Of a stretch of DNA of 64,000 nt, positions 34,176 through 43,865 are shown piece after piece; the first letter of the stretch is position 1, and the number at the start of each line of letters is the position of its first letter. Source of the stretch: Bacteroidota bacterium (GTDB lineage: Bacteria; Bacteroidota; Ignavibacteria; OLB7). The notes beneath the pieces are model-generated. The model was not told the DNA's origin and made no database searches. It saw nothing but the letters and a program-made list of their open reading frames with translations. Location: positions 90,971 to 154,970 of the forward strand of contig JAFDZV010000036.1 in assembly GCA_018266795.1 (NCBI GenBank), read 5' to 3'. The position numbers and the translations under genes were made by a program.

Positions 34176-34206
34176 TTGACAACACGTGCGTCATCGGTTA
34201 CCTTTG
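34176..34206 (+). promoter_or_regulatory. Bacteroidota-type promoter for the DUF4062 gene
   Basis: TTGACA (34176-34181), a 17-nt spacer and TACCTTTG (34199-34206) match the TTGACA-N17-TAxxTTTG form seen before rpsT. The next ATG (34311) is 105 nt downstream. Confidence 0.75.
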
Positions 34207-34310
34207 CATGCCCCAATGGTTGTGGGCCGCCTGCCCGGCAATCCCGCAGGAGACATCCTCGTTCACGGCATCCGCCGCGGCTCACACTCCGACTACCCGG
34301 ACAGGAATTC

Positions 34311-37274
34311 ATGATGCCCGCTGTATTGCCGAATGGAACAACGTCACTGGCGCCGGACCTGCGTGTGTTTATCTCGAGCACATTCAACGACATGTGTTCC
34401 GAGCGCGAGCATCTTATGAAGCAGGTGTTCCCGGAACTGCGCAGCATCTGCCGTGCGCGTGGCGGCGATCTCACGGAGATAGATCTCCGCTGGGGCATCA
34501 CGGAGCAGCAGGCGCGTTCGGGGGCCATCGTGAAGGCCTGTCTGGAGGAGATAAGCCGTCACCAACCCTGGTTCATCGGCATCATCGGCGATCGCTACGG
34601 ATGGATACCTGCGCGGCGTGACGTAGCGGACCCGCGCCTGCACGAGCGCTATCCGTGGCTTCGCGCGGCGGTGGACGAGCGTCGCAGTCTGATCGAGTTG
34701 GAGGTGATCGAGGGAGCGCTCAACCGGCCGCTCACTGCCGCCAATGCATTCTTCTACTTTCGCGCGTCGCAGGCTGATTCCGGCGGCGCACAGCGCGCCG
34801 AGAGCGACGAGGCGCGCCTCAGGCTTGTCCGGCTTAAGGAGCGTATCCGCCGGAGCGGCCTTCCGTTCCGTGAGGGGTTCACCAGCCCGGAGCAGCTTGC
34901 CGGCTGGGTTCGTGAGGACATGATGCGCGCCATCAACCGTGTGTATCCGTGCCACTCCGAGGCCGATTCTCTGCAGCACGAACGTGCGGCACACGAGGCG
35001 TTCGAACGATCGCGGCGTCGCGCCTACGTTGAGACGCCGGTGCTGCTGGAGCGTCTGGACGCGTTGCTCTGCACGGTGCCGGCGGCCAACCCGGTTCACG
35101 GCCGCCGGCTGGTAGTTACGGGAGTATCCGGGGCGGGGAAGAGCGCGCTGCTCTCGTTCTGGAGCGATCGCTTTCGCAGGCGAATGTCCGATGCCTTCAT
35201 CATCACCCACTACATCGGCGCATCATCGGGCAATCTGGACCATCTTTCGCTGCTGCGCTGGATCATGGCGGAGATCGGCGAGCGCTACTGCGTGCCGGAT
35301 GCGCTGCCGTCGCGCGCCGAAGATATCGTGCGCGAGTTTCCGGTGTGGCTGAGCCGCGTGCAGGATGAGGATCTGATTATCGTGATCGACGCGCTCAATC
35401 AGATGGACGAGGCCTCGCAGACTCTCGCATGGCTGCCGGAGCATCTGCCGGAGCGCGTGGCAGTGATTGTTTCAGCTACGGAGGGAACCGCACTCGATGC
35501 GATTCGCGATCGCGCCTGGCCGGAGCTTGAAGTGCGTCCGCTTACGCTGGACCAGCGTCGCGCCGTCGTGGAACTGTACCTGGAGGAGTTCGGCAAGCGG
35601 TTCGACACCGGACAGTTGGAGCGCATCTCGCGGCGCGCCGTAAGCGCCAACCCGCTCTATCTGCGAACGCAGTTGGAGGAGTTGCGCACCTATGGATCGT
35701 TCGAAGGGTTGAACGATCGCATCGATTACTATCTCGCTGCGTCCGGTCTGGACGATCTGTTCCAGCGCGTGTTGGCGCGGTTGGAAAACGATTACGGTGT
35801 CGATACCGTGCGTGAGGTGATGACACTGGTCTGGGCGTCGCGCGACGGGCTGGCTGATGGGGAAGTGCGGGAACTTGCGGGCGCGGAGGATGCGGCGATC
35901 GGCCGCCTGCTTGCAGCGCTTGGCTATCACATGACCTATCGCAACGGGCTCCTCTCGTTCTATCATGATCATCTGCGGCGCGCGGTGCATGCGCGCTACA
36001 TCTCGGGCATCGCAAACGGCGAACGCGAACTGCATCACCGGCTGGCGCATTATTTCGCCTCGCAGCCTGTGGGAAGGCGTCGGGCCGCAGAGGAGCCGTG
36101 GCATTGGTGCCGGGCCGAGGCGTGGGAGGCGCTGCGCGATGCGATTGCCGATGTTCAGATGATGCTTGCCATCACACGGCACGGCGCGGACTACGAGCTG
36201 GTGCAATACTGGGTGGCGATTGCGTCGCGCGGGGACATCGTTGCAGCGTATGAGCGGGGCATGGAGCAATTCGAGGCGCGGGAACGCAGTCCGGCTGCGG
36301 TTGCCGAGGCATTGGATGCGCTGGCAAAGTTTCTGATCGATGCCGGCCGCTACGATGCCGCCGCACAATTCGCTCGTCGTGCGGTGATGCTTCGCGAGCG
36401 GGCGGGCGATCTCGCCGATCCATCGATCGCGGCCGCACTGGACAATCTCGCCACGCTTCTCTATCACGATGGGCGCAGCGAGGAGGCGCTGGAGCCGGCA
36501 CGGCGAGCGCTTGCAATACGCCGTGCCACACTTCAGGAACATGCTCCGGAGATCGCGCGCAACCTTGCCGATATCGGTGCGCTGCTCTATGCCATCGGAG
36601 CGCGGGAGGAGGCGGAGGCTGCACTGGGAGAAGCGCTTGCGGTTACCGGGCCACGAGACCTTCCTGTGGTGGCGATGATTCTCAACAACCTCGGAGCACT
36701 GCGGCTGGCCGCGAAGGCATTCCACGAGGCGGCACCTCACTTCGAACAGGCGCGCGATATCAACCGCCGGTTGCTTGGTGCAGAACATCCGGAGGTTGCA
36801 TCCAACCTCGTGAACCTTGCGTTCGCGCAGGCCGGGATGGGACATGCTGCCGACGCCGAACGAACCTACGGCGAGGCCCTGGCAATCGTGGAACGCTGGC
36901 TTGGTCCGGAGCATCCGCAGGCTGCCGTGATTGCCACCAATCTCGGCAGGCTGTATCAGGACACCGGCCGCATGGCCGTTGCCGAGAAGCAGTTCGTGCA
37001 GGCGCTTGCGATCCGTGAGAAGATTGCGGGGCACGAACACCCGGAGACGGTTCTGAGCATGATGCGCCTGGCATATGTGCTCATGCGGCTGGGCCGGAAT
37101 GCCGAATGCCGGCGCCTGTACGAGGAGGCGCTGCGGATTCGCCGCGCGATGCTGCCGGAGAATCATCCGGACGTTCAGTGGCTCGTTGATCGCATCGCAA
37201 TTCTGCCGTGCGATCCTGAAGACGACGTAGAACGCAGCGAGGCCCGCGACGCCGCAATCACGCAGCGGTTGTGA
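34311..37274 (+). CDS. DUF4062-NACHT-like-TPR STAND protein (NPHP3/TEP1-like)
   Basis: This 987-residue predicted signalling ATPase has three parts. DUF4062 is at about 18-105 (LRVFISSTFNDMCSEREHLM, IDLRWGITEQQ, WFIGIIGDRYGWIP). A STAND/NACHT NTPase has Walker A GVSGAGKS (271-278) and Walker B LIIVIDALNQMDE (about 355-367). A kinesin-light-chain-type TPR array covers about 640-960 (DNLATLLYHDGRSEEALEPA and later units). This is the layout of eukaryotic NPHP3, NWD1 and TEP1 and of bacterial STAND proteins suspected in defence or programmed death. No separate effector domain is evident, so DUF4062 may serve as one. ATG 34311 or 34314 is the start. It has its own promoter. Confidence 0.88.
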   Translation: MMPAVLPNGTTSLAPDLRVFISSTFNDMCSEREHLMKQVFPELRSICRARGGDLTEIDLRWGITEQQARSGAIVKACLEEISRHQPWFIGIIGDRYGWIPARRDVADPRLHERYPWLRAAVDERRSLIELEVIEGALNRPLTAANAFFYFRASQADSGGAQRAESDEARLRLVRLKERIRRSGLPFREGFTSPEQLAGWVREDMMRAINRVYPCHSEADSLQHERAAHEAFERSRRRAYVETPVLLERLDALLCTVPAANPVHGRRLVVTGVSGAGKSALLSFWSDRFRRRMSDAFIITHYIGASSGNLDHLSLLRWIMAEIGERYCVPDALPSRAEDIVREFPVWLSRVQDEDLIIVIDALNQMDEASQTLAWLPEHLPERVAVIVSATEGTALDAIRDRAWPELEVRPLTLDQRRAVVELYLEEFGKRFDTGQLERISRRAVSANPLYLRTQLEELRTYGSFEGLNDRIDYYLAASGLDDLFQRVLARLENDYGVDTVREVMTLVWASRDGLADGEVRELAGAEDAAIGRLLAALGYHMTYRNGLLSFYHDHLRRAVHARYISGIANGERELHHRLAHYFASQPVGRRRAAEEPWHWCRAEAWEALRDAIADVQMMLAITRHGADYELVQYWVAIASRGDIVAAYERGMEQFEARERSPAAVAEALDALAKFLIDAGRYDAAAQFARRAVMLRERAGDLADPSIAAALDNLATLLYHDGRSEEALEPARRALAIRRATLQEHAPEIARNLADIGALLYAIGAREEAEAALGEALAVTGPRDLPVVAMILNNLGALRLAAKAFHEAAPHFEQARDINRRLLGAEHPEVASNLVNLAFAQAGMGHAADAERTYGEALAIVERWLGPEHPQAAVIATNLGRLYQDTGRMAVAEKQFVQALAIREKIAGHEHPETVLSMMRLAYVLMRLGRNAECRRLYEEALRIRRAMLPENHPDVQWLVDRIAILPCDPEDDVERSEARDAAITQRL

Positions 37275-37875: not shown

Positions 37876-39582
37876 ATGAACATCAATGTGATGCAGCATC
37901 CGGGATCGGAGACGCCCGCCGATCGTATCGGTGCGATTGAACTGCAGCTTGCAGCCGCGCGCGATCCGCGCGCCCGGCTGGATCTGATTACACGGTTCGT
38001 GGAGGAACTGCGCACCGGAAATCCCCGGTATGCTGCCGGCCTTGCTGCAGAGGGGCTGCATCAGGCCTATACGCTGCGCGACATCGTCGCAACGGCCGTG
38101 TTGCTGCTGGCGCGTGGATGCGCGCGCGTGGCGCTGGGAGAACTCCGCGCCGGGCTTGCGGATCTCGAGGAGGCGCACGGTCTGTATGTAGACGCCGGCA
38201 ACTGTGAACAGATGGCCAGGGCGGCGCAGGAACTTGGGCGGTGCCACCTGGCCGCGGGCGCGCCGGCGGTTGCGCTCGAGTGGCTGCGAGCGGCCCTGGA
38301 AGCCGCGGCCGACGAACGGACACGTCCGGTGCGTGCGCGAACGCTCGAGGCCTTGGGCGACCTGAGGACAGGTTTGGGCGACTATGCGGCCGCGCTGGAA
38401 CACTACCTGGAGGCAATGGCGTTGTTCGAAGGGTTGGGCGATCGCGATGGCAGTGGTGCGGTGCTGTGCGCGCTCGGCATGCTGTACGCGCGAACCGGTG
38501 ACCACGCTCGTGCATTGGAGAATCTGATCCGCAGTGCCAAGATGTTCCAGGAGACCGGTAACCGGCTGGCAGAGGTTCGCACCCTCCACAGACTTGCCGA
38601 GGCGCAGTATGCGGCCGATGATCTGGAGGGGGCCATTGCGAACGGGCTGCGCGCGCTTACGATCTACGAAGCTCTGGGCGATACCGAGAGCGCCACCCAT
38701 GTGATGGCGACGATCGGCAAGGTGCATGCAACGAAGGGGGAGCATGCCGTTGCGCTTGGATTGTTGATGCGCGCGTACGCTCACCTCGATGCCTCACGCA
38801 GCCATGCACTCCGCGTGGACATCCTGACGACGATCGGCCGTCTGTATGCAGACACCGAGGCGTACGACGATGCGTTCTTCGTGCTGAGTCAGGCGCTTGG
38901 CATGGCCGAGCAGATCGATGAGCCGCCGCTGCAGCAGGAAATTCACAAAGTGTTTGCCGATGCCTACGAACGGCTGGGCCGTGCCATGCAGGCATTGGAG
39001 CATTACAAACGCTATTCAACGTTGCGAGACGATCTGGCCGGAAGGGAGCGGCAGAAGGCGATTGCCGAGTTGCAGATCCGGTTTGATGTTGCCGCCGCCG
39101 AACGCGATCGTGAGATCTACCGGCTGCGTGCCGTACAGCTCGAGACGGAGATGCGTCTGAAGGGAAACGAACTGACGGCGATGGCGCTCAATCTGGTGCA
39201 GAAGAAGGAACTGTTGGAGCAGATGCGCGAACGCCTCATTGCCATGCGGGGCAACGGCGTTGTGGGGGCAGGCGAATTGGTGGAGCGAATGATTGCGGAG
39301 ATCGACGGCGCGCGGAATGCGGATACGGACTGGAAGCGGTTCGAACAACAACTGGATAATCTGCATCATGATTTTGTTCGTACGCTGTCCGAACGCTTCC
39401 CTACGCTTACACCCGCCGAGGTGAAAGTCTGCTCGCTTGCGCGCATCGATCTTCCCACCAAGGATATCGCCAATCTTCTTTATGCATCCACGCGAACCAT
39501 CGATGCCCACAAATACAGGATTCGCCGGAAGCTTGGGTTGGCGCCGAACGTAAGCCTGAGCACCTTCCTCGCCGGGCTGTGA
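37876..39582 (+). CDS. TPR protein with C-terminal LuxR-type HTH
   Basis: This 568-residue cytoplasmic regulator has TPR-like helical pairs from about 20 to 400 (LARGCARVALGELRAGLADL, ALGMLYARTGDHARALENLI, HKVFADAYERLGRAMQALEH). A coiled coil follows (about 385-490). The C-terminal LuxR/GerE HTH (about 510-565) has LTPAEVKVCSLARIDLPTKD and STRTIDAHKYRIRRKLGL. It lacks a membrane helix, unlike many Bacteroidota TPR-LuxR regulators, so it probably senses a partner in the cytoplasm. Target genes are unknown; the tail-collar genes downstream are candidates. Confidence 0.85.
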   Translation: MNINVMQHPGSETPADRIGAIELQLAAARDPRARLDLITRFVEELRTGNPRYAAGLAAEGLHQAYTLRDIVATAVLLLARGCARVALGELRAGLADLEEAHGLYVDAGNCEQMARAAQELGRCHLAAGAPAVALEWLRAALEAAADERTRPVRARTLEALGDLRTGLGDYAAALEHYLEAMALFEGLGDRDGSGAVLCALGMLYARTGDHARALENLIRSAKMFQETGNRLAEVRTLHRLAEAQYAADDLEGAIANGLRALTIYEALGDTESATHVMATIGKVHATKGEHAVALGLLMRAYAHLDASRSHALRVDILTTIGRLYADTEAYDDAFFVLSQALGMAEQIDEPPLQQEIHKVFADAYERLGRAMQALEHYKRYSTLRDDLAGRERQKAIAELQIRFDVAAAERDREIYRLRAVQLETEMRLKGNELTAMALNLVQKKELLEQMRERLIAMRGNGVVGAGELVERMIAEIDGARNADTDWKRFEQQLDNLHHDFVRTLSERFPTLTPAEVKVCSLARIDLPTKDIANLLYASTRTIDAHKYRIRRKLGLAPNVSLSTFLAGL

Positions 39583-39785
39583 TTGCACGGTCCCGCTGCT
39601 GATTTCATTTCCGACCGCCGCCACCCTCAAGCAGATTCAAGTGCCGGTGCCGGCCCTGTAAGCAATTCTTAGGTACGATCCCACCATGCCATGCAGTTCA
39701 CATTTGCACTGCCGGCCGGCATTATCCACCTGGTTCTGCATGGTTCGGCATTGCCAACAATCATCTCTACAGAATGGGGGATCAA

Positions 39786-40877
39786 ATGTCTGGAAAAACT
39801 TCTGCCGAATCCGGCACGGTTGCTGTCGAAACGGTATCAGGAATTATTCCTGTCGGCACGATCATGTATTACGCGGGTGACTCGAGTGCCGGCTCCATTG
39901 TCAATCTGCTCTCAACCGGCTGGCTGCTGTGCGATGGCTCGAAGTATCGCCGCACCAGCAGCACGTACAGTGCCCTGTACTCGATTATCGGCGACGCCTA
40001 CGGCGGCGACGACAACGATTTCTGCGTGCCGATGCTGAAAGGTCTGTTCCTTCGCGGCGTTACTGGTACCAATCCTCGCGATCCCGACGCCACCTCCCGC
40101 AAGGCTCCGCGCGCAGACCTTCCCAGGAACGGCAACGCGGGCAACGCCGTCGGCTCGCTGCAGACGGATGCGTTCCAGAAGCATTCGCACTCCTACGATG
40201 AATACAGCGCTCATCGTGATCAGGATCACATCGCAGCCCACGAGACGATCAATAATCAGGCCGCCACGACGGCGAACATGGAGATGGCCGGCGGCTCCGA
40301 GACGCGTCCGAGAAACATCTACGCCAACTTCATCATCAAGTATCTGCCGAACGACGGCCGGATTCCGATTGCCGGGGTGATACCGTATGCGGGCAGCATT
40401 CCGAATCCGATGCTGGAGGGAACCGGCTGGCTGCCATGTGACGGTGCGGGCCTGGACGCCTCGCAGTACTTCGACCTCCATGATATCATCGAGACATCGT
40501 ACGGCGGGAGCGGCTCCACGTTTTACCTCCCGGATTATCGCGGCCGCTTTGTTCGCGGTGTGCAGGGGACATCAACTCCCGGCATACCGATCTACGATCC
40601 CGATGCGAACACGCGAACGGCCCCCACAAGCCATGCGACTCCCGGCAACAGCGGCAATCAGGTCGGGTCGATTCAGAGCGATGCCATTGCCCGCCACCTT
40701 CATACGTACGGATTCAACGATGCCTACCAGAAGACGGCGGCAACGGCGATCGGATTCGAAGGCGTTGCGCGCGACAACGGTACGGACAACCATGCCTCCG
40801 GCAGCCACGGCGGGTCGGAGACGAGGCCGGTCAACATCAATGTGAATTATCTGATCAAGGCGCTGACTGTTTCGTAA
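39786..40877 (+). CDS. Protein with two tandem phage tail-collar domains
   Basis: This 363-residue protein contains two copies of the tail-collar (microcystin-dependent protein, MdpB) domain. Copy one covers about 15-185 (GTIMYYAGDS, GWLLCDGSKYRR, FCVPMLKGLFLRGV, GGSETRPRNIYANFIIKYL). Copy two covers about 190-360 (GVIPYAGSIPNPM, GWLPCDGAG, FYLPDYRGRFVRGV, GGSETRPVNINVNYLIKAL). Such domains form trimeric collar or fibre tips in phages and are also found in chromosomal proteins of unknown role. ATG 39786 has a ggggga ribosome site; ATG 39774 is in frame but less well placed. No other phage structural genes are nearby. Confidence 0.85.
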   Translation: MSGKTSAESGTVAVETVSGIIPVGTIMYYAGDSSAGSIVNLLSTGWLLCDGSKYRRTSSTYSALYSIIGDAYGGDDNDFCVPMLKGLFLRGVTGTNPRDPDATSRKAPRADLPRNGNAGNAVGSLQTDAFQKHSHSYDEYSAHRDQDHIAAHETINNQAATTANMEMAGGSETRPRNIYANFIIKYLPNDGRIPIAGVIPYAGSIPNPMLEGTGWLPCDGAGLDASQYFDLHDIIETSYGGSGSTFYLPDYRGRFVRGVQGTSTPGIPIYDPDANTRTAPTSHATPGNSGNQVGSIQSDAIARHLHTYGFNDAYQKTAATAIGFEGVARDNGTDNHASGSHGGSETRPVNINVNYLIKALTVS

Positions 40878-40929
40878 ACAGCTCACGCATGTCGACATCA
40901 ACCAAACATCAAACAAGGACGAGAGCATC

Positions 40930-41457
40930 ATGCCGGACAATTTCTATCCGATCGGTTCCGTACTCCCGTATGCCGGGCCGATCGACCAGAGCAGTGAGGG
41001 AGTGTTGATCGCGCAGGGGTTCATTCCATGCGACGGCCGTTCCCTCTCGAACACCAGCCCGCAATACGCCGCGCTGCTTCAGGCGATCGGTGGTTCGTAC
41101 GGGCAGGACGCAACACATTTCTATGTGCCCGATTATCGCGGGGTATTTCATCGGGGTGTGGATGCGGGGGCGGGGCAGGATCCCAATGCGGCCTCGCGTA
41201 CCGTGCCGCGGCCCGATCTCCCCTCCGGTGGGCAGGGAAATTCAGGCAACAATGTCGGGTCGCTGCAGGCGTTTCAGATCGCTTCGCACACGCATCAATA
41301 CGCGCGGCACAAGGGGACGCACAAATGCAACTACGGCTCGCTGATCGGCCCGGGTGTATTCACCGGAGGGACCACGTCGAAAACCTCAGGCGACACCGGT
41401 CAATCGGAGACGCGCCCGGTGAACCTGTACACGAACTACGTGATCCGGTACGCGTAG
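40930..41457 (+). CDS. Single-domain tail-collar protein
   Basis: This 175-residue protein has one collar domain: IGSVLPYAGPIDQSSEGVL, GFIPCDGRSLSN, FYVPDYRGVFHRGVDAG and GQSETRPVNLYTNYVIRYA. It is clearly related to the upstream double-domain protein. The start has aaggacgag upstream. Transcription should end at the terminator 41586-41609. It may form a complex with its neighbour. Function is unknown. Confidence 0.85.
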   Translation: MPDNFYPIGSVLPYAGPIDQSSEGVLIAQGFIPCDGRSLSNTSPQYAALLQAIGGSYGQDATHFYVPDYRGVFHRGVDAGAGQDPNAASRTVPRPDLPSGGQGNSGNNVGSLQAFQIASHTHQYARHKGTHKCNYGSLIGPGVFTGGTTSKTSGDTGQSETRPVNLYTNYVIRYA

Positions 41458-41585
41458 CCTGGTGACGCCGAGCATGCAACAGCGCTGCATGCAGGAACAC
41501 CCTGTTCCTGCGCACGAGGCAGCGTGCCGGGAGCATTGCCACGTTTCCTTGATTGTGTAGGTTCGTGCTATTCGTGCAGATCGTG

Positions 41586-41609
41586 ACCCGGCGGCAACGC
41601 CGGGTTTTT
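41586..41609 (+). terminator. Rho-independent terminator after tail-collar genes
   Basis: The perfect 8-bp stem acccggcg/cgccgggt with tetraloop gcaa is followed by ttttt. It separates the collar genes from the nucleotidyltransferase pair, whose first ATG is 25 nt later. Confidence 0.9.
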
Positions 41610-41633: not shown

Positions 41634-42257
41634 ATGGAGTTCACGGGCAGTTTCGAGACACATATCACGATCGTTGGTGATAACGCGGCGACGCTGGATG
41701 CTGCACGCAGGTTCGCAGACATGCATGGGATGAAGTTCGTGCATATCGTGCTCGATCGCGGTGCCCTGATGTCGCAGCCAATGCTTACACGGCGCGGGCG
41801 CGGTACACTTTCCGATCAACTCCTGGTTGCAGGGCAGCTTGCAGGCAAACTGCGGGGCGCCGGCGTTACGGTTATCCGCGTGAAGATCGAGGCTGCGCCA
41901 TTGAACATCGGCGTTCCACTGACTGAGGACGAAGCCTTGCGGCTTGGTCCGGAGCGGTACTTCGAACATCATGTGAAGCTGTTGCTCCCGGCCGACGCCG
42001 ATCCGGCTCTTCTGTGCGAGGTGGCCCAGCTGCGTTCTGCGCATCTGTCCCGGAATGTGTTCAAGCGCATGGCGGATGGTTGCGTTGAGCGCTTTGTTAC
42101 GCAGCGCTGCCACGGTGTCCGGCGCGAAGATGCTCGCAGGCGTCTTACCGACTTGACGCAGGCAATCGAGCCGTTTGGATACCCGGTTCTGGAAGTGGAG
42201 GAGGAGTACGTTGTGTACGATAGCGATGCGGCAGTTGACTACGGTTGGATCATATGA
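41634..42257 (+). CDS. Conserved protein of unknown function, partner of the nucleotidyltransferase
   Basis: This 207-residue protein shows strongly patterned motifs: FETHITIVG near the N-terminus, KFVHIVLDRGALMSQPML, VIRVKIEAAPLN, YFEHHVKLLLP, HLSRNVFKR, FVTQRCHGVRREDARRRL and YVVYDSDAAVDYGWI at the end. I believe related proteins occur in Actinobacteria and other phyla, but I know no function. The two halves look like paired ferredoxin-like or LigT-like folds (inference). The start ATG 41634 follows the terminator by 25 nt. The stop is 12 nt before the nucleotidyltransferase ATG, so the two form an operon. Confidence 0.75.
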   Translation: MEFTGSFETHITIVGDNAATLDAARRFADMHGMKFVHIVLDRGALMSQPMLTRRGRGTLSDQLLVAGQLAGKLRGAGVTVIRVKIEAAPLNIGVPLTEDEALRLGPERYFEHHVKLLLPADADPALLCEVAQLRSAHLSRNVFKRMADGCVERFVTQRCHGVRREDARRRLTDLTQAIEPFGYPVLEVEEEYVVYDSDAAVDYGWII

Positions 42258-42269
42258 ACGGAGCGAACC

Positions 42270-43439
42270 ATGGCCACACTCTGGGAACGGATTCGGGCGA
42301 TCGTTACTTCGCAGTCGAAACACGATGGCGGTGCAGTCGGCGCAGTGGCGCGGGTTACCGATGAAGCCGGTCCGCCGGTCGGTCCTGTGCCGCAATCACA
42401 GCCGGAGGCGTCAGCAGTGCCGGCTGCGAAGCCCGACGGCATTCCGCCCGGCACACCCGCCACCATACTGATCCCTGAACCACCGTTCGAGCCTTCGGAC
42501 TATCCGCAGACGTACTTGATGTCTGTTGTCGATGCCGGGGCGGCGAAACAGGTGCGATTGTTCGAGCCGGCGCTGAAACATTTCATGCGCGCATTCCGAT
42601 TCGGCGAGCCGGAATTCGCAGACTCCGTGCTCGCGCAGCGGTGGTACGCAACGCGTACCCGCGTAATCGAGCACCTTCTTCGCGTTGTTGGCGAGTCGGA
42701 ATGGTGCGATCACCTCGTGTTGCGAGGAAGTGTGTTGATGAAGACATGGTTCGGAAGCAGCGCTCGCGAACCGGGTGATATTGACTGGGTGGTAATCCCT
42801 GCGAGCATCGAACTCGCGGACCTTCGGGCGTGCCGGATCGTTCAAGGCCTGATCTCCGCGGTGAACCTGCAATCTGATATTGGTGATGGATACATCCTCG
42901 TTGACGAGGTTACCATGGACGACATCTGGACGTACGAGCGCGCGCAGGGGCGGCGTATCGTGTTTCCGTGGAGTGCGCCGGGACTACCTCGGGGGAGCGT
43001 GCAAATGGATATTGTCTTCGGTGAAAAGCTCCCCCGTGTGCCGATGCCGGCACAGATCCCGATTTCCGATGGCCGCACCATTTCCCTGCAGTCGGCAGCC
43101 AAGGAGCTCGCGCTCGTCTGGAAGCTGCTGTGGCTGGAGACCGACAGCTATCCGCAGGGAAAGGATTTGTACGATGCGGTGCTACTGGCAGAACAGACGG
43201 TGCTGCCACGTTGGTTGCTGGACCAGGTTCTGGGAGCCGAGCGCTACGGACGGATACCGCCGCCCGTGAAACCGGATTTTCCGCTTCAGTGGGAGGTGGA
43301 CTGGGAGAACTTCATTCGGGAATATCCATGGGTGGAAGGGGATGCCGCTGAGTGGCAGATGCGTCTGAGGACAGCGCTTGCCCCGACATTCGACGGCATG
43401 CAACCGCCGGAGGGATCGCGCACAGAGAAGGGTGCGTAG
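42270..43439 (+). CDS. Nucleotidyltransferase, AbiEii/AbiGii-like
   Basis: This 389-residue protein has the polymerase-beta-type NTase signature: Gly153-Ser154 in LVLRGSVLMKTW, Asp170 and Asp172 in GDIDWVV, and a third acid Asp247 in VQMDIVFGE. Helices AAKELALVWKLLWLETD and PQGKDLYDAVLLAEQ follow, as in AbiEii-type toxins. The first 90 residues are Pro/Ala-rich and probably disordered. Unlike AbiE systems, the upstream gene is not an AbiEi-type winged-helix antitoxin. It presumably transfers a nucleotide to RNA or protein together with the 41634 gene product (inference). Confidence 0.82.
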   Translation: MATLWERIRAIVTSQSKHDGGAVGAVARVTDEAGPPVGPVPQSQPEASAVPAAKPDGIPPGTPATILIPEPPFEPSDYPQTYLMSVVDAGAAKQVRLFEPALKHFMRAFRFGEPEFADSVLAQRWYATRTRVIEHLLRVVGESEWCDHLVLRGSVLMKTWFGSSAREPGDIDWVVIPASIELADLRACRIVQGLISAVNLQSDIGDGYILVDEVTMDDIWTYERAQGRRIVFPWSAPGLPRGSVQMDIVFGEKLPRVPMPAQIPISDGRTISLQSAAKELALVWKLLWLETDSYPQGKDLYDAVLLAEQTVLPRWLLDQVLGAERYGRIPPPVKPDFPLQWEVDWENFIREYPWVEGDAAEWQMRLRTALAPTFDGMQPPEGSRTEKGA

Positions 43440-43526: not shown

Positions 43527-43564
43527 AAACTCCCCTCGCCGCAACGATGCAGCGAGGGGAGTTT
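43527..43564. terminator. Bidirectional intrinsic terminator between convergent genes
   Basis: aaactcccctcgc (43527-43539) is perfectly complementary to gcgaggggagttt (43552-43564). It has A-rich and T-rich outer ends on both strands, so it can stop both the + strand nucleotidyltransferase unit and the - strand RRM gene. Another palindrome, gggaggag-gt-ctcctccc, lies at 43502-43519. Confidence 0.88.
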
Positions 43565-43607: not shown

Positions 43608-43865
43608 TCAGCGGCGCTCCTTCGAGCGAGCCTCGTTGACCGTGAGCGAACGTCCATGCAATTCGGTTCCGTTGATCGAACCGATGGCGGCCGTCGCCTC
43701 ACTGCTGTTGGCCATCTCGACGAATCCGAATCCGCGGGACATTCCGGTGTCGCGATCGTTGACGACGGCTGCCGACGTTACCGTTCCCTTGGTGGAGAAC
43801 AGCTCGTTCAAATCGTCGCTGGTCGTCTGACCTGAGAGGTTCCCGACATAAAGCTTTGTTGCCAT
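43608..43865 (-). CDS. RRM-domain RNA-binding protein
   Basis: This 85-residue, single-RRM protein of the bacterial Rbp type (common in cyanobacteria, Bacteroidota and Chlorobi) binds RNA. RNP2 is KLYVGNL at the N-terminus and RNP1 is RGFGFVEM near residue 45. The C-terminus NEARSKERR is short, without the Gly-rich tail seen in some members. Such proteins often respond to cold and have long leaders. Here about 370 nt of non-coding DNA precede it. Confidence 0.95.
   Translation of the reverse strand: MATKLYVGNLSGQTTSDDLNELFSTKGTVTSAAVVNDRDTGMSRGFGFVEMANSSEATAAIGSINGTELHGRSLTVNEARSKERR

What the first reader, a model, noticed from the sequence alone, without database searches (positions are those of the whole stretch)
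41634..43439. Two-gene module: patterned unknown protein plus AbiEii-like nucleotidyltransferase
The NTase has all three acidic residues (Asp170, Asp172, Asp247) and the GS motif. Its tightly linked partner (12-nt gap) is not an AbiEi antitoxin but a 207-aa protein with strict motifs (FETH, YFEHHVK, HLSRN, VYDSDAAVDYGW). The His/Asp/Arg motifs suggest an enzyme or nucleotide/RNA-binding fold. The module lies in an accessory region 4.4 kb after a STAND ATPase gene, so a defence or RNA-repair role is possible.
Basis: partly seen in the sequence, partly recalled or inferred. Interest (0 to 1): 0.65.

Follow-up and report, generated by a model that had tools for sequence, protein, structure and literature searches.

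The report
RNA-repair-linked nucleotidyltransferase and double-ferredoxin partner
Two neighbouring genes, often fused into one protein in other bacteria, encode a tRNA-toxin-like nucleotidyltransferase and an uncharacterised double-ferredoxin-fold protein whose relatives sit beside RNA-repair genes in bacteria and phages, so the pair probably mends broken RNA ends rather than being the 'AbiE' toxin-antitoxin that databases call it.

Summary
In detail: a 207-aa protein (P1, 41634-42257) and an AbiEii-superfamily nucleotidyltransferase (P2, 42270-43439) lie 12 nt apart, with every motif named. In 76 distinct full-length cellular P1 loci, 70 carry the NTase: 35 fused in one ORF, 33 adjacent on the same strand, one convergent, one diverged. 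P1 has no Pfam or NCBIfam match. PADLOC calls it 'AbiEi', but its predicted fold (pLDDT 96) is two tandem beta-alpha-beta-beta-alpha-beta units, with no winged helix and no close solved structure; it is neither AbiEi nor demonstrably 2H. P2 folds like MenT3, a tRNA nucleotidyltransferase toxin. In two planctomycetes of one clade P1-P2 is embedded in a Hen1-RlaP-P1-P2-RlaP cluster, in one of them continuous with Pnkp. A Deinococcus plasmid has an RNA ligase beside it. P1 homologues without P2 lie within three genes of RNA ligases of different folds in three phage lineages, and structural homologues occur in klosneuviruses. All 41 P1 genomes tested carry the RNA-repair NTase RlaP. Neighbours show no defence island. 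Best reading: an RNA (probably tRNA) end-repair module in which P1 recognises or heals the broken end and P2 restores nucleotides. No activity is shown; the window's own neighbours are uninformative.

The parts
41634..42257 (+). P1, 207-aa partner: two tandem beta-alpha-beta-beta-alpha-beta (ferredoxin-like) units
   Evidence: AlphaFold2 pLDDT 96.3, pTM 0.91; PADLOC 'AbiEi' PDLC02277 E=1.5e-68; no Pfam or NCBIfam match
41634..41918 (+). P1 first half (residues 1-95), with invariant H10-x-T12 (cat at 41661-41663) and the R82-x-K84-x-E86 strand
   Evidence: matches the second half, P=4.8e-5
41943..42254 (+). P1 second half (residues 104-207), with YFEHHVK (E111, H113, K115), HLSRN (S139, N141), R158, D196, D202, W205
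42270..43439 (+). P2, 389-aa AbiEii/MenT-superfamily nucleotidyltransferase
   Evidence: Pfam PF08843 E=3.3e-15; closest solved fold MenT3/TglT Rv1045, E=5.4e-9 to 1.6e-6, TM 0.52-0.57
42270..42497 (+). P2 N-terminal extension: short amphipathic segment (MATLWERIRAIV) plus Pro-rich linker; similar starts recur in P2 proteins that are not fused to P1
   Evidence: a docking role is inference
42726..43010 (+). P2 catalytic residues: G153-S154 (42726-42731), D170 (42777-42779), D172 (42783-42785), D247 (43008-43010)
   Evidence: invariant in alignment A7
41585..41606 (+). terminator-like hairpin plus T run just upstream of P1, probably ending the collar-gene unit or lying in the P1 leader
   Evidence: the number found does not exceed shuffles, so weak

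Best explanation
P1-P2 is an RNA end-repair module, most likely for tRNA. P1, a double-ferredoxin protein with an invariant His/Arg/Lys/Glu/Asp patch, recognises or chemically heals the end left at a broken RNA. P2, an AbiEii/MenT-type template-independent nucleotidyltransferase held next to it by fusion, overlap or a docking helix, adds back lost 3' nucleotides. Sealing is left to an RNA ligase encoded elsewhere (Pnkp, Rnl, RtcB or a phage ligase). Shown: the pair is a unit; the two folds (predicted); the catalytic residues; genomic linkage of the family to RNA ligases, Hen1, Pnkp and RlaP. Inferred: the substrate, the reactions and their order, and P1 being catalytic rather than only RNA-binding.
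For: (1) Operon: in planctomycete G737 (L054) Hen1, RlaP, P1, P2, a 132-aa gene, RlaP, a HEAT-repeat gene and Pnkp (PNKP_ligase E=8.5e-182) are co-directional with overlaps or gaps of about 10 nt or less; in G1391 (L136) Hen1-RlaP-P1-P2-RlaP is kept although P1 is only 37% identical. (2) Deinococcus plasmid L048: RNA ligase PF09414 divergent, about 90 bp from P1-P2. (3) Phage P1 genes lie within 3 genes of a T4-Rnl1 ligase (phiM12), RtcB (Arash) and an Rnl2-type ligase (XacN1); a SerRS gene lies close downstream in two jumbo-phage contigs. (4) RlaP in 41 of 41 P1 genomes against 13/20 P1-negative Micromonosporaceae (Fisher 5e-4) and 3/20 P1-negative planctomycetes; Hen1 in 35/41. (5) Fusion in 35 of 76 loci suits one enzyme better than an independently degraded toxin and antitoxin. 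(6) Closest solved P2 fold is MenT3, a tRNA nucleotidyltransferase. (7) Structural homologues in klosneuviruses, including Bodo saltans virus, whose authors report several tRNA-repair genes (PMC5871332).
Against: Most cellular P1-P2 loci are stand-alone with ordinary neighbours. The full repair operon is seen in one planctomycete clade only. The window's genome has one RlaP on another contig and no Hen1 or Pnkp match. RNA ligases are common in large phages; the three close cases among about nine lineages give P of about 0.007 under an assumed three ligases per genome. Aeromonas phages and ME3 show no ligase nearby. P2 could equally be a tRNA-inactivating toxin by fold.
Confidence: 0.5

Rival explanations
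1. Atypical type IV (AbiE-like/MenAT-like) toxin-antitoxin: P2 is a toxin that adds nucleotides to intact tRNA and P1 is an unrelated-fold antitoxin that neutralises it.
For: P2 belongs to the AbiEii superfamily and folds like MenT3; PADLOC labels the pair AbiEi/AbiEii; antitoxin gene first, close coupling; patchy distribution (1 of 297 genomes of its phylum).
Against: P1 has no winged helix and no AbiEi Pfam match. Fused in 35 of 76 loci. P1 occurs without the NTase in every phage lineage read. P1 carries a strongly conserved polar patch, unusual for a mere neutraliser. Embedded in Hen1/Pnkp operons. No defence-island context.
Confidence: 0.2
2. Sensor-effector defence module: P1 senses a phage-made RNA or nucleotide and activates P2 to inactivate tRNA.
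For: NTase effector plus sensor logic is known; a STAND gene lies 4.4 kb away; phage homologues of P1 could be decoys or antagonists.
Against: No recurrent defence genes near homologues; stable syntenic inheritance in one actinobacterial group next to helicase genes; P1 is near RNA ligases rather than anti-defence genes in three phage lineages.
Confidence: 0.12
3. P1 is a divergent 2H-like 2',3'-cyclic phosphodiesterase that heals RNA ends before P2 or a ligase acts.
For: Two pseudo-symmetric His motifs on equivalent strands (H10-I-T12 and H113-V-K115); the only local match to E. coli ThpR aligns YFEHHVKLLL with its catalytic FHPHITLL; repair-operon context.
Against: That profile match is insignificant (probability 0.2%); no 2H Pfam family matches; no 2H structure in the top 50 PDB matches; the second motif lacks Ser/Thr.
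Confidence: 0.1

Closest known systems
AbiE type IV toxin-antitoxin (AbiEi/AbiEii)
   Same: P2 is an AbiEii-superfamily NTase; two close genes with the partner first; PADLOC names both
   Different: Partner fold is double ferredoxin-like, not winged-helix AbiEi; frequent P1-P2 fusion; RNA-repair neighbours
MenAT3 (Rv1044-Rv1045; TakA-TglT/MenT3)
   Same: Closest solved fold of P2 (TM 0.52-0.57), a tRNA-acting NTase
   Different: About 12% identity; partner is not the kinase-like MenA3/TakA
Bacterial Pnkp-Hen1 RNA repair with RlaP NTases
   Same: P1-P2 sits inside such clusters in two planctomycetes; RlaP is predicted to restore lost nucleotides before ligation
   Different: P2 is not RlaP and P1 is none of the known subunits; most P1-P2 pairs are unlinked to these genes
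2H phosphoesterases (LigT/ThpR)
   Same: Internal duplication with paired His motifs
   Different: Different strand/helix order, second HxT missing, no significant profile or fold match
phrog_1247 'MazG-like pyrophosphatase' of phages
   Same: Its C-terminal half is the P1 domain
   Different: Fused to a MazG-like domain, no NTase

Membership tests
AbiE type IV toxin-antitoxin | AbiEii-family NTase with GS and Asp motifs | tested here: met
   PF08843 E=3.3e-15; invariant GS, D170, D172, D247
AbiE type IV toxin-antitoxin | AbiEi winged-helix antitoxin upstream | tested here: not met
   No Pfam match at E<=1; model is tandem ferredoxin-like. The PADLOC 'AbiEi' label names this family itself, without a winged helix
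AbiE type IV toxin-antitoxin | P2 toxic, P1 neutralises | not testable with these tools
   needs expression in a laboratory host
MenAT3 | MenT3-like NTase fold | tested here: met
   TM 0.52-0.57, E down to 5e-9
MenAT3 | MenA3/TakA kinase-like partner | tested here: not met
   P1 fold and sequence unrelated
Pnkp-Hen1-RlaP RNA repair | genes in one operon with Hen1, Pnkp or RlaP | tested here: inconclusive
   Met in L054 and L136; not met in the window or in most P1 loci
Pnkp-Hen1-RlaP RNA repair | RNA end repair activity | not testable with these tools
   needs biochemistry
2H phosphoesterase | two HxT/S motifs in a LigT fold | tested here: not met
   second motif HVK/HIQ/HAR; no 2H in top 50 PDB matches; hhalign to ThpR 0.2%
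RlaP (PF10127) | PF10127 match of P2 | tested here: not met
   P2 matches only AbiEii in Pfam

The most novel reading that the evidence does not exclude
P1 founds an unrecognised double-ferredoxin family of RNA-end recognition or healing proteins shared by bacteria, large phages and giant viruses, and the fused P1-P2 protein is a self-contained 3'-end rebuilding enzyme, which would mean that part of the databases' 'AbiE toxin-antitoxin' entries are RNA-repair enzymes.
Probability: 0.4. Interest if true: 0.78.

Novelty: new variant of a known kind. Interest (0 to 1): 0.6.

Why it matters
A family filed as AbiE antitoxin has the wrong fold for one, and its genomic company is RNA repair. If confirmed it adds a new component, with a new domain, to bacterial and viral RNA-repair systems, shows an AbiEii/MenT-type NTase working for repair rather than poisoning, and corrects defence-system annotation. 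It is directly testable with one fused protein and a nicked tRNA.

Tried and rejected
LigT/2H fold for P1: fold search and a direct profile comparison with E. coli ThpR gave nothing significant. Solved relatives of P1 by sequence: none. Viral-contig scans with P1 or its alignment: no relatives; scans with phage homologues gave five loci. Defence-island reading: the PADLOC scan of 114 neighbours gave mainly helicase-type and other matches that I take to be housekeeping genes. A common origin of P1 and P2: profiles do not match. Recurrent neighbours in Micromonosporaceae proved to be inherited synteny in two groups. Chlorite-dismutase and ACT-like PDB hits have TM 0.4 or less and are taken as shared topology only. 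The main paper on RlaP and RNA-repair systems (NAR 2016, doi 10.1093/nar/gkw722, identified from memory) is not held, so I could not check whether it already mentions this family.

Full report
WHAT IS THERE. P1 (41634-42257, 207 aa) and P2 (42270-43439, 389 aa) are co-directional with a 12-nt gap. P2 is an AbiEii-superfamily nucleotidyltransferase (PF08843, E=3.3e-15). P1 has no Pfam or NCBIfam match. PADLOC matches it to models called AbiEi (PDLC02277, E=1.5e-68; PDLC02279, 6.6e-34) and P2 to AbiEii (1e-108), so the pair is already catalogued as an AbiE system, by sequence only.

A REAL UNIT. The eight loci first fetched from other genomes all had the NTase: four fused with P1 in a single ORF, three next to it, one convergent. 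Over 76 distinct full-length cellular P1 loci: 35 fused, 33 adjacent on the same strand (often overlapping), one convergent, and seven without the NTase at a strict cut-off, one of which (L133) has a diverged NTase at 5.5e-20. Several of the rest are relatives, in the same synteny group, of loci that keep it. P1 was always N-terminal in the fusions read. Separate P2 proteins often begin with a short amphipathic segment and a Pro-rich linker (MATLWERIRAIV here; MASIWQRIKNSFF, MSNFWKRLHNHLF, MSQLWQLLFGQ elsewhere), which I take as a docking element (inference).

DISTRIBUTION. 1 of 297 genomes of the window's phylum (the window itself), 15 of 298 in a planctomycete class, 67 of 251 in the Micromonosporaceae, 4 of 281 in a further phylum, one Deinococcus plasmid and one Embleya plasmid. 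In a tree the window's P1 pairs with a planctomycete P1 (98/81), suggesting horizontal transfer. Sequence homologues without P2 occur in large phages of Aeromonas, Sinorhizobium, Stenotrophomonas, Xanthomonas, Salmonella and Acinetobacter. In jumbo phages P1 is the C-terminal half of a MazG-like protein (phrog_1247; weak MazG match in RAS14). Structure search adds klosneuviruses (Fadolivirus, Klosneuvirus, Bodo saltans virus, Yasminevirus; TM 0.73-0.80, E 1e-11 to 1e-14).

FOLDS. P1 model: pLDDT 96.3, pTM 0.91; two beta-alpha-beta-beta-alpha-beta units. The halves match each other as profiles (P=4.8e-5), putting H10 on H113. Residues kept from bacteria to phages include R82, K84, E86, Y109-F110-E111, H113, S139, N141, T156, R158, E189, D196, D202 and W205, a polar strand-borne patch typical of a ligand or active site (inference). 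The best solved folds are only topologically similar (chlorite dismutase, acetolactate synthase small subunit; TM 0.4 or less). No 2H structure is in the listed top 50, and E. coli ThpR gives probability 0.2%. P2 model: pLDDT 92.7; best solved fold MenT3/TglT Rv1045, TM 0.52-0.57.

RNA-REPAIR COMPANY. In planctomycete G737 (L054) one co-directional cluster runs Hen1 (Hen1_L, 1.3e-115), RlaP, P1, P2, a 132-aa gene, RlaP, a HEAT-repeat gene, and Pnkp with kinase, phosphatase and ligase domains (PNKP_ligase 8.5e-182). The order Hen1-RlaP-P1-P2-RlaP (fragment near the contig end) recurs in G1391 (L136), where P1 is only 37% identical while RlaP is 77%; both lie in one planctomycete clade. The Deinococcus plasmid has an RNA ligase (PF09414, 1.4e-16) divergent from P1-P2. 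Phage P1 genes lie within three genes of a T4-Rnl1 ligase (phiM12, which also has a CCA-type NTase 3.7 kb away), RtcB (Arash) and an Rnl2-type ligase (XacN1); RtcB and the Rnl ligases are unrelated folds, so this is not one inherited neighbourhood. A seryl-tRNA synthetase lies close downstream in two jumbo-phage contigs. With three ligases per genome assumed, three close cases in about nine phage lineages has P of about 0.007. RlaP is in 41/41 P1 genomes tested against 13/20 P1-negative Micromonosporaceae (Fisher 5e-4), 3/20 P1-negative planctomycetes and 0/20 relatives of the window's class. Hen1_L and PNKP_ligase are each in 35/41. RlaP is predicted to restore lost nucleotides before ligation (PMC7824862), and the bacterial Hen1/Pnkp-type complex repairs ribotoxin-cleaved RNA (PMC4411300). 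Bodo saltans virus is reported to carry several tRNA-repair genes (PMC5871332).

WHAT SPEAKS AGAINST. Most P1-P2 loci have ordinary neighbours. The window's genome lacks Hen1 and Pnkp matches and its single RlaP is on another contig. The co-occurrence tests do not correct for genome size or phylogeny. No defence island is seen, and the STAND gene nearby is not a recurrent neighbour.

VERDICT. The pair works most likely as an RNA (tRNA) end-repair module: P1 recognises or heals the end, P2 adds nucleotides, a ligase elsewhere seals. It fails the defining AbiEi test, so it should not be filed as AbiE, although P2 may still act chemically like MenT. The link to RNA repair is well supported for the family, moderately for this copy; the chemistry is inferred. 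I could not check whether the 2016 survey of RNA-repair systems (cited from memory, not held) already mentions P1, so novelty is stated with that reservation.

Noticed in passing
34176-37274 (+): DUF4062, AAA_16/NACHT and TPR (NPHP3-like) STAND-type protein, followed at 37876-39582 by a TPR protein with a LuxR-type helix-turn-helix.
   Followed up: partly
39774-41457 (+): Two consecutive phage-tail-collar-domain proteins, the first with two collar domains, directly upstream of the module.
   Followed up: no
43608-43865 (-): Small RRM RNA-binding protein converging on P2, with a G+C-rich inverted repeat between the two genes at 43530-43561 (read by eye).
   Followed up: no
L079, L083, L140, L141: Some P1 loci carry two P2-type NTases in a row, the second more diverged.
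   Followed up: no
L094 5683-6597, L098 5677-6630 and other jumbo-phage loci: P1 domain at the C-terminus of MazG-like proteins; what MazG has to do with it is unexplained.
   Followed up: partly
L143 4124-6181 (Acinetobacter phage ME3): P1 homologue between an HD-type phosphohydrolase and a phosphoglycerate-mutase-like gene, with a metallophosphoesterase nearby.
   Followed up: no
L069, L076, L083, L085, L090: Diverged fused P1-P2 copies that lack several invariant P1 residues (no HLSRN), possibly decayed or repurposed.
   Followed up: no
L048 3369-4901 and 7747-9447; L054 3347-4657: HEAT/LRV-repeat proteins accompany P1-P2 both on the Deinococcus plasmid and in the planctomycete repair operon.
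   Followed up: no
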